From a virus: a DNA stretch of 64,000 nucleotides. Location of the stretch: positions 55,643-119,642 of IMG/VR virus record IMGVR_UViG_3300043429_000130, one strand, 5' to 3'. Within the stretch, counting starts at the first letter, position 1, and each line of letters opens with the position of its first letter. The position numbers were made by a program, and so were the translations under genes. Below the pieces are notes generated by a model. The model did not search any database and was not told the origin of the DNA. It saw only the letters and a list, made by a program, of their open reading frames with translations. This document shows, in pieces, positions 30,416 through 41,401 of this stretch.

Positions 30416-30557
30416 ATAATAGATTCCAAACTTACCATAATAATTTTTCAACATTTGTGTATAACCCCCACCTCTTAGTGTACATATATAGACCCCCCCC
30501 CTTGATAACATCCGTAGTAGAGGTTGTGAGTACCCGCCCAACCAAGCTACCCCACCA

Positions 30558-30565
30558 TAAATTTG
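30558..30565 (+). promoter_or_regulatory. Candidate -7 promoter element (plus)
   Basis: TAAATTTG matches TAnnTTTG and would start transcription near 30,571, inside the first hairpin GGGGG-AATA-CCCCC ahead of the hairpin-rich gene. No clear -33 TTG at standard spacing. Confidence 0.4.
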
Positions 30566-30567
30566 AC

Positions 30568-30908
30568 GGGGGAATACCCCCTCGTTTAACAAGTTAAACT
30601 TAAATTTATGGCAGCAACATCATTGCATCTGCTTGCAAAGCAAGCCTTGACCGAAGGTTCAGAGAACCTTACGTTCAACATTTCTACCGTGGAAACTAAG
30701 GCGTTCCCACGTACGAAAAACGTGGCCTTCAGAGCCACGACAGACCAAGGTACTGTCGTGACCTTCTGGGCCAGTAACATGGACTCTGTGGTAGAGTCCA
30801 TTGATGACGACGGAAACTTCCGTGTCATCCCCGGCACCCGCAGAGCGGATGACGGCAGCCTTTGGGATGACTCCCAAAGAAAAGGAATCTGGGATTAACC
30901 CAGATTTC
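30568..30908 (+). repeat. Serial perfect-hairpin array covering a gene
   Basis: At least nine hairpins follow one another: GGGGG/CCCCC (30568-30581), GTTTAAC/GTTAAAC (30584-30599), GCTTGC/GCAAGC (30631-30645), AAGGTTC/GAACCTT (30654-30670), CGTGGAAAC/GTTCCCACG with one mismatch (30688-30711), CGTGGC/GCCACG (30721-30739), CACGACAG/CTGTCGTG (30736-30760), ATGGACTCT/AGAGTCCAT (30779-30801), an 11-bp stem with one bulge (30803-30829), CTTTGGGA/TCCCAAAG (30860-30879) and GGAATCTGGG/CCCAGATTTC (30884-30908). Some arms can also pair with the next one. Confidence 0.85.
30608..30898 (+). CDS. Unknown 96-residue protein encoded in a hairpin chain
   Basis: First gene of the plus-strand block. The sequence is much less AT-rich than its neighbours and reads with varied third positions. 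The protein (MAATSLHLLAKQALTEGSEN ... SLWDDSQRKGIWD) has a mixed hydrophilic composition with repeated Asp-Asp pairs; no family recognised. The ATG follows TAAATTT, the usual A/T leader. Almost the whole message folds into consecutive stems, and the stop codon lies in the loop of a terminator. High early expression with a protected message is one reading; a structured RNA that also carries an open frame is another. Confidence 0.65.
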   Translation: MAATSLHLLAKQALTEGSENLTFNISTVETKAFPRTKNVAFRATTDQGTVVTFWASNMDSVVESIDDDGNFRVIPGTRRADDGSLWDDSQRKGIWD

Positions 30909-30915
30909 TTTTTTC
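30884..30915 (+). terminator. Terminator overlapping the stop of the hairpin gene
   Basis: Stem GGAATCTGGG/CCCAGATTTC (one G-U pair), loop ATTAA holding the TAA stop, then a run of T. Confidence 0.8.
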
Positions 30916-30931
30916 TGTTCAGTCATACCAC

Positions 30932-30983
30932 AACTCGGTACTACGTCTTATATAGTTTTTCTGTTAGGATGCAGTACTGAGTT
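30932..30983 (+). promoter_or_regulatory. Long imperfect hairpin
   Basis: AACTCGGTACTACGTC (30932-30947) pairs with GATGCAGTACTGAGTT (30968-30983), 16 positions with two G-U pairs and one A-C mismatch, loop 20. The G-U pairs work only on the plus strand, so a plus-strand RNA is likely selected. It may be a leader or processing site for the next small gene. Confidence 0.5.
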
Positions 30984-31553: not shown

Positions 31554-31629
31554 GCTCATATTTGACCCCATTAACATAGATATTATATAGTATACTCTAT
31601 ACTGTGTTAAGGAGAGCTCAAATATGAGC
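31554..31629 (+). repeat. 12-bp inverted repeat between small genes
   Basis: GCTCATATTTGA (31554-31565) and TCAAATATGAGC (31618-31629) are perfect complements around 52 bases that include ATAGTATACTCTAT. No T tract follows. Possibly an RNA processing hairpin or protein-binding site between two early genes. Confidence 0.6.
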
Positions 31630-31649
31630 CCACTAAAAGTTTTATTCCT

Positions 31650-40800: not shown

Positions 40801-41037
40801 ATGCAATATACATTTGTTATTAATGGAACATCACAACTAGTTCTTATTCCAGAGAATGATCTAGATAGAATGATGTTAGAAAGAACCCTTGAAGCTGGTG
40901 CTACAATAGAGGTGGAAAAAATATCACAACCTGTGAGTATTTTAGGTAAGCCAGTTATGGATAGTTATGTATTAAAGCGTAAATTACATTCTACTCAAAC
41001 AGCTTTAAATACTAAAAATGATCCAACCGAAGCTTAA
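40801..41037 (+). CDS. Small unknown protein
   Basis: 78 residues, beta-rich (YTFVINGTSQLVLIPENDLD). Overlaps the HNH-like gene by 20 bases in a different frame. Confidence 0.5.
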   Translation: MQYTFVINGTSQLVLIPENDLDRMMLERTLEAGATIEVEKISQPVSILGKPVMDSYVLKRKLHSTQTALNTKNDPTEA

Positions 41038-41401
41038 ACAGTGTGCTGGTTGTAACCAGATGAAACACATATGGAAGTCTCAAGGAAAAGATAAATACTG
41101 CAAGGAATGCTGGTATAGTATTGAGAAACCTAAGTCTATAGCTCCTGTATCTAAAAAGATGCGGGAGACTATAGATCAGTATTCTAAAATACGTACTGCA
41201 TACCTTGTAGTTAACTCTTCTTGTAAAGCAAGACTTCAAGGATGTACTAGTGCAGCTACAGAAGTACATCATAAAGCAGGTAGAGGTGAAAACCATCTAC
41301 GCATTGCTACATGGTTACCTGTATGTAGAAACTGCCACACATGGATAGAGCTTCATCCTAATGAAGCTAAAGAACTTGGATTATCTGAAAACAGATTGTA
41401 A
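41018..41401 (+). CDS. HNH-like zinc protein
   Basis: 127 residues. N-terminal zinc ribbon CAGCNQMKHIW ... CKECW, then a CTSAATEVHHKAGRGENHLR segment and VCRNCHTWIELHPNEAKELG. The HH, CxxC and C-terminal H/N positions match a compact HNH nuclease of the NinG-like or phage HNH type. It could nick DNA in recombination or be a homing-type enzyme. Confidence 0.65.
   Translation: MIQPKLKQCAGCNQMKHIWKSQGKDKYCKECWYSIEKPKSIAPVSKKMRETIDQYSKIRTAYLVVNSSCKARLQGCTSAATEVHHKAGRGENHLRIATWLPVCRNCHTWIELHPNEAKELGLSENRL

What the first reader, a model, noticed from the sequence alone, without database searches (positions are those of the whole stretch)
30568..30915. A gene made of consecutive perfect hairpins
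From 30,568 to 30,908 nearly every stretch belongs to a perfect or near-perfect hairpin with 5-11 bp stems and short loops, yet an intact 96-codon frame runs through it. Seven or more stems of at least 7 bp are visible; fewer than one is expected by chance in this length. Arms repeat in alternating order (CGTGG/CCACG four times; GATGAC/GTCATC), allowing switching structures. The GC level differs sharply from the region. It is the first gene after the divergent control region. Possible roles: very stable early message, RNA decoy or protein-binding array, or single-stranded DNA hairpins at an origin.
Basis: seen in the sequence. Interest (0 to 1): 0.85.

Follow-up and report, generated by a model that had tools for sequence, protein, structure and literature searches.

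The report
Phage gene written in chained hairpins
A small protein gene at the start of the rightward (probably early) genes of an uncultured freshwater-type phage is at the same time a chain of a dozen short, perfectly matched hairpins, and all ten relatives compared keep both the protein and the chain, which makes it an unusual doubly constrained gene whose purpose can now be tested.

Summary
Window 30568-30915 folds at -145 kcal/mol, z -9 against dinucleotide shuffles, and is the strongest structure outlier of the 64 kb on both strands. It is a real gene: 10 homologues (40-67% aa identity, indels in whole codons, dN/dS 0.07-0.46). Every homologue keeps the chain. No synonymous-codon permutation of any member (0 of 200 each) reaches the native fold. 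Covariation is strong: 62 two-sided compensatory cells against 21 expected, none of 500 shuffles. Unrelated or unrecognisably diverged small genes at the same position in sister phages are mostly unstructured. The chain therefore belongs to the gene, not to the locus, which argues against an origin or a packaging site.

One result cuts against a plain stable-mRNA story. The stems are local and almost purely Watson-Crick, with about 4% G-U against about 10% in shuffles. G-T is no better tolerated than A-C, and the antisense strand folds as well or better. Simulated sense-RNA selection gives the opposite pattern. I favour a self-folding early transcript whose arms are kept perfect by strong selection and/or template-switch repair. 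DNA-level function and non-functional palindrome upkeep remain open. It most resembles the coding palindromes of nematomorph mitochondria. Host, transcription start and protein function are unknown.

The parts
30512..30529 (+). TATRNTAGAGGNTGTGA-like block, conserved upstream of the first rightward gene across the clade whatever the gene is; candidate early promoter core
   Evidence: direct comparison of 21 loci; function inferred
30535..30572 (+). leader hairpin candidate CCCGCC...GGCGGG (here GACGGG), exclusive with the next hairpin
   Evidence: sequence comparison; inferred
30555..30611 (+). long-range inverted repeat CCATAAATTT / AAATTTATGG that embraces two hairpins and the start codon; one pair covaries (A-T, G-C, T-A)
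   Evidence: helix 1, 93% of cells paired; also contains TAAATTTG, a match to the Bacteroidota -7 box (recalled consensus)
30568..30581 (+). hairpin GGGGG-aata-CCCCC
   Evidence: replaced by TGACGGGG/CCCCGTCA and GGATG/CATCC in homologues
30584..30599 (+). hairpin GTTTAA-caag-TTAAAC
30608..30898 (+). 96-aa ORF (P0001), protein of unknown function, no family hit
   Evidence: coding shown
30614..30626 (+). hairpin GCAA-catca-TTGC
   Evidence: covaries to CAATT/AATTG in L167 (helix 2)
30631..30645 (+). hairpin GCTTGC-aaa-GCAAGC
   Evidence: helix 3
30654..30670 (+). hairpin AAGGTTC-aga-GAACCTT
   Evidence: GGTCAAC/GTTGACC, AGTCAAGAT/ATCTTGACT in homologues (helix 4)
30688..30711 (+). hairpin CGTGGAAAC-taaggc-GTTCCCACG
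   Evidence: helix 5
30721..30739 (+). hairpin CGTGGC-cttcaga-GCCACG, competes with the next
   Evidence: sequence
30736..30760 (+). hairpin CACGACAG-accaaggta-CTGTCGTG
   Evidence: helix 7
30779..30801 (+). hairpin ATGGACTCT-gtggt-AGAGTCCAT
30803..30829 (+). hairpin GATGAC(GACGGA-aact-TCCGT)GTCATC
   Evidence: helix 10 (96% of cells paired)
30831..30855 (+). hairpin CCGGCACCCGC-aga-GCGGATGACGG (imperfect)
30860..30879 (+). hairpin CTTTGGG-atgact-CCCAAAG
30886..30914 (+). terminator-like hairpin AATCTGGG-attaa-CCCAGATT plus T run; the stop codon lies in its loop

Best explanation
It is a short early gene of a Bacteroidota-type tailed phage in which the protein sequence and a chain of about 12 local hairpins are maintained together. 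Most likely the transcript, from its leader to the terminator at the stop codon, folds as it is made into a continuous row of hairpins. That would shield a message needed at the start of infection from single-strand-specific ribonucleases, antisense RNA or RNA-guided attack, and perhaps tune its translation. The arms are kept perfectly Watson-Crick by strong selection, probably helped by template-switch correction between arms. Shown: the hairpins, their conservation with compensatory changes, the coding frame, and the link to the gene rather than to the position. Inferred: transcription, early timing, stability and the shielding role.
For: Structure beyond codon and composition controls in all 11 members. 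Covariation 0.222 against 0.097 +/- 0.010 shuffled, 26 two-sided pairs, slid structures 0.09 or less. Watson-Crick cells 574 against 514 +/- 6 when synonymous codons are swapped among homologues. 71-94% of MFE pairs span 35 nt or less, against 52-60% in synonymous shuffles. The chain runs from the leader to the terminator. Alternative first genes at the same place mostly lack it.
Against: Selection on a sense RNA should favour G-U over A-C. In close homologue pairs single departures are 28 G-T and 26 A-C, and in strand-neutral hairpins of the CDS 4 G-T and 21 A-C. The antisense strand is on average 7.5 kcal/mol more stable, whereas random peptides evolved for sense stability give -17.4. The protein has no known relative, both AlphaFold models were poor, and there is no expression evidence.
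Confidence: 0.42

Rival explanations
1. Self-perpetuating palindromes: once short inverted repeats existed in this gene, template switching between the arms during replication kept restoring perfect Watson-Crick matching, as proposed for coding palindromes of nematomorph mitochondria; no function of the hairpins is needed.
For: Local, Watson-Crick-only and strand-symmetric pairing is what such repair produces. Two-sided changes (62 cells) far outnumber one-sided ones among cells that still pair. Mechanism described in PMC8794818, PMC3820800 and PMC6649704.
Against: All 11 members keep the chain at corresponding places down to 54% nucleotide identity. Other first genes at the same position are mostly not affected. 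The leader hairpins are replaced by different but equally good ones.
Confidence: 0.25
2. DNA-level function: the inverted repeats act as cruciforms or single-stranded DNA hairpins in the phage DNA, for instance as sites for a structure-specific phage enzyme.
For: Strand symmetry and equal treatment of G-T and A-C. A further inverted repeat joins the leader to the start codon (helix 1). Cumulative GC skew turns near 31-32 kb.
Against: Sister phages with the same control region and other first genes mostly lack it. No shared sequence motif seen in arms or loops (by eye). The GC skew turn follows gene orientation.
Confidence: 0.18
3. Antisense RNA: the functional folded molecule is transcribed from the minus strand and the sense gene merely overlaps it.
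For: Antisense folds more stably in most members (9 of 11 by CDS MFE). A-C (G-U on the other strand) exceeds G-T in the hairpins, 21 to 4.
Against: The terminator T run and the conserved leader point rightward. The excess comes from related sequences, and close pairs show 28 G-T to 26 A-C.
Confidence: 0.06
4. Chance or composition: a GC-rich gene that happens to fold well.
For: GC 52% in a 36% genome. CDS pieces of this and other phages show a mild average excess of structure.
Against: Synonymous permutation keeps codon usage and GC and never reaches the native fold in any of 11 members; covariation.
Confidence: 0.01

Closest known systems
Coding palindromes in mitochondrial genes of Nematomorpha (PMC6649704)
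   Same: Perfect inverted repeats embedded in functional protein genes, arms kept matched, few imperfect repeats.
   Different: There the repeats are up to 284 bp, scattered and gained or lost between species; here about 12 short stems fill one small phage gene and stay in corresponding places across homologues.
Template-switch maintained RNA hairpins (PMC8794818)
   Same: Watson-Crick-only correction and double substitutions in stems.
   Different: Described for RNA genes; here a protein-coding gene, and the mechanism is only inferred.
Structured coding regions of RNA phages such as MS2 (from memory)
   Same: A dense fold overlapping codons.
   Different: Those are RNA genomes and tolerate G-U; this is a dsDNA phage gene with few G-U pairs.
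Phage mRNA protection, such as T4 Dmd against RNA decay (T4 annotation)
   Same: Protecting phage messages from decay is the proposed purpose.
   Different: Dmd is a protein acting in trans; here the protection would be in cis and is untested.

Membership tests
Coding palindromes (Nematomorpha type) | Inverted repeats inside a translated, conserved frame | tested here: met
   10 homologues, codon-sized indels, dN/dS 0.07-0.46; hairpins in the CDS. Translation itself not tested.
Coding palindromes (Nematomorpha type) | Perfect Watson-Crick arms without excess of wobble pairs | tested here: met
   910 Watson-Crick, 22 A-C, 6 G-T, 23 other in strand-neutral hairpins; G-U 2-7% of MFE pairs against about 10% in shuffles
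Coding palindromes (Nematomorpha type) | Long repeats, scattered, dynamic between species | tested here: not met
   Stems of 4-19 nt, in corresponding positions across homologues
Conserved structured RNA overlapping a coding region | Covariation beyond shuffled and slid controls | tested here: met
Conserved structured RNA overlapping a coding region | G-U tolerated over A-C on the functional strand | tested here: not met
Known Rfam RNA family | Match above the curated cut-off | tested here: not met
   Only chance-level hits below cut-off
Replication origin or packaging site | Element kept at the locus in related phages | tested here: not met
   Alternative first genes at the same locus mostly unstructured
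Array of sites for one sequence-specific binding protein | Shared motif in loops or arms | tested here: inconclusive
   No common loop or arm sequence seen by eye among the listed hairpins; no formal motif search was made

The most novel reading that the evidence does not exclude
A phage has evolved a hairpin-armoured gene: a whole early transcription unit rewritten under dual constraint into Watson-Crick hairpins so that its message, or its DNA, resists a host attack on single-stranded nucleic acid, with the perfect pairing maintained by arm-to-arm template switching.
Probability: 0.25. Interest if true: 0.85.

Novelty: new variant of a known kind. Interest (0 to 1): 0.62.

Why it matters
Few genes are this tightly bound by two codes at once. 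The family gives natural variants in which to ask whether a DNA phage can armour a message, whether template switching maintains hairpins in coding DNA, and why wobble pairs are avoided. Sister phages with unstructured genes at the same position are ready-made controls.

Tried and rejected
Named phages: no DNA or protein relatives of the gene. Pfam, PHROGs, PDB and Rfam: no credible hit. GTDB genome scan with the alignment: none, so no host or prophage. AlphaFold twice: pLDDT 52 and 46, so no fold search was run. Profile comparison with the other first-gene families: no detectable relation. Canonical Bacteroidota promoter TTTG-N16-21-TAnnTTTG: no excess in the window. The leader pattern CAANCNRCCCCACCATAA marks only this family among the relatives; its other hits look like chance. 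A genome-wide excess of structure as the cause: the mean CDS z in the window is similar to that of a crAss-like phage and only somewhat above T4 and a Flavobacterium phage.

Full report
What is there. The window is the last 64 kb of a 119,642-base virus record. Its terminase is a distant relative (about 25%) of those of crAss-like and Flavobacterium phages, so the host is probably a member of the Bacteroidota. Hundreds of IMG/VR contigs carry close terminase and exonuclease relatives. Leftward structural genes and rightward genes diverge at about 30.4 kb. The finding is the first rightward gene, a 96-codon ORF at 30608-30898.

The segment 30568-30915 folds at -145.2 kcal/mol against -94.9 +/- 5.5 for dinucleotide shuffles. 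In a scan of the whole window in 200-base pieces it is the extreme of both strands. Over 199 pieces of coding sequence it ranks first when both strands are counted; the next is an HNH-like gene at 41018-41401 (HNH by inspection of the sequence).

Homologues. The protein has no named relative, but relatives lie upstream of the exonuclease in other contigs. Eleven distinct full members, including this one, were compared. Indels are whole codons and dN/dS is 0.07-0.46 in close pairs, so the frame is under protein selection. All eleven have the chain: sense z -4.6 to -8.7, antisense z -5.2 to -10.9, with 0 of 200 permutations reaching the native value in any case. On an alignment made without structure, a local hairpin structure of 71 pairs has 83.6% paired cells against 74.9 +/- 0.7, 26 pairs with two-sided change against 15 +/- 2.5, 62 two-sided cells against 20.7 +/- 3.8, and covariation 0.222 against 0.097 +/- 0.010. 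None of 500 shuffles reaches any of these four, and structures slid by 1-3 columns give 0.09 or less. That structure was derived from the same alignment, so it leans towards it; relatedness is not fully removed by these controls. Swapping synonymous codons among homologues with the same residue lowers Watson-Crick cells from 574 to 514 +/- 6, at most 532 in 1000 trials.

The chain goes with the gene. In sister phages the corresponding control region is followed by other small first genes of at least two families. Profile comparison finds no relation to this one, and most fold little better than permuted codons (sense z about 0 to -2.6). The exceptions are milder than this gene or confined to one strand: L117 -4.5/-3.5, L152 -6.0/-2.0, L154 -4.0/-2.2. 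A locus-bound role such as an origin or packaging site, or a purely regional mutation bias, is therefore unlikely.

The anomaly. In the MFE only 2-7% of pairs are G-U, against about 10% in synonymous shuffles, and 71-94% of pairs are local against 52-60%. In strand-neutral hairpins of transcript and flanks there are 910 Watson-Crick, 22 A-C, 6 G-T and 23 other positions; this detection favours Watson-Crick by design, so only the A-C to G-T comparison is informative. In close pairs single departures are 28 G-T to 26 A-C (my sum over the six closest pairs, each counted from both sides). The antisense CDS is on average 7.5 kcal/mol more stable than the sense. As a yardstick I evolved random artificial peptides, not the phage gene: selection on sense stability gives a sense-minus-antisense gap of -17.4, on antisense +17.8, on both +1.3. 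The natural family (+7.5 +/- 7.8) resembles both-strand selection more than sense selection. Hence the selected or maintained object looks like short perfect inverted repeats, not merely a stable sense RNA.

Interpretation. Three accounts fit. First, a self-folding early message in which perfect local stems matter and wobble pairs are purged. Second, template-switch upkeep of palindromes without function, the explanation offered for coding palindromes in nematomorph mitochondria (PMC6649704); the same mutation process is argued to create and repair RNA stems in evolution (PMC8794818), and highly transcribed DNA is prone to such events in yeast (PMC3820800). Third, a DNA-level role. Persistence in all members and absence from alternative genes favour function over pure mutation; strand symmetry favours repair or DNA. 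I commit to the first with help from the second, at 0.42. A shield against RNA-targeting defence is conceivable, since Flavobacterium columnare carries the RNA-targeting type VI-B CRISPR system (PMC8092290, seen as a search hit only), but nothing here tests it.

Leader. The loci compared largely keep TATRNTAGAGGNTGTGA followed by an 80-nt leader with pairing of its own. If transcription starts there, the repeat CCATAAATTT/AAATTTATGG would cover the start codon (mean unpaired probability just upstream of the ATG about 0.22, against 0.79 if transcription starts at the GGGGG hairpin). This could be a translational switch; it is untested.

Noticed in passing
window 30512-30607 and loci L083, L087, L117, L127, L129, L142, L144, L146, L154, L150, L152, L153: A conserved block TATRNTAGAGGNTGTGA after C tracts, followed by a structured leader, precedes the first rightward gene whatever that gene is: a candidate clade-wide early promoter plus regulatory leader RNA.
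   Followed up: partly
window 41018-41401 (+): 127-aa HNH-like gene, the second most hairpin-rich coding sequence of the window (z -6.6 sense, -4.9 antisense).
   Followed up: partly
L083, reverse strand, 3349-3685 bases upstream of the exonuclease start: An unrelated 111-aa gene (MEQLIQEIQSLEERL...) with strong coding structure on both strands (z -8.6 and -5.6).
   Followed up: no
window 30933-30982: Inverted repeat ACTCGGTACT / AGTACTGAGT about 30 bases apart, downstream of the terminator; homologues show ACTTAGTACT / AGTACTAAGT.
   Followed up: no
window 31557-31640: Extended inverted repeat around CAGCTCATATTTGACCCC / GAGCTCAAATATGAGCCC, also present in L083 and L087.
   Followed up: no
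L205 10653-18776 (-): 2707-aa protein and neighbouring giant proteins of the same phage without recognisable family apart from one weak hit (phrog_1017, 1.7e-07); position recalls the giant proteins of crAss-like phages.
   Followed up: partly
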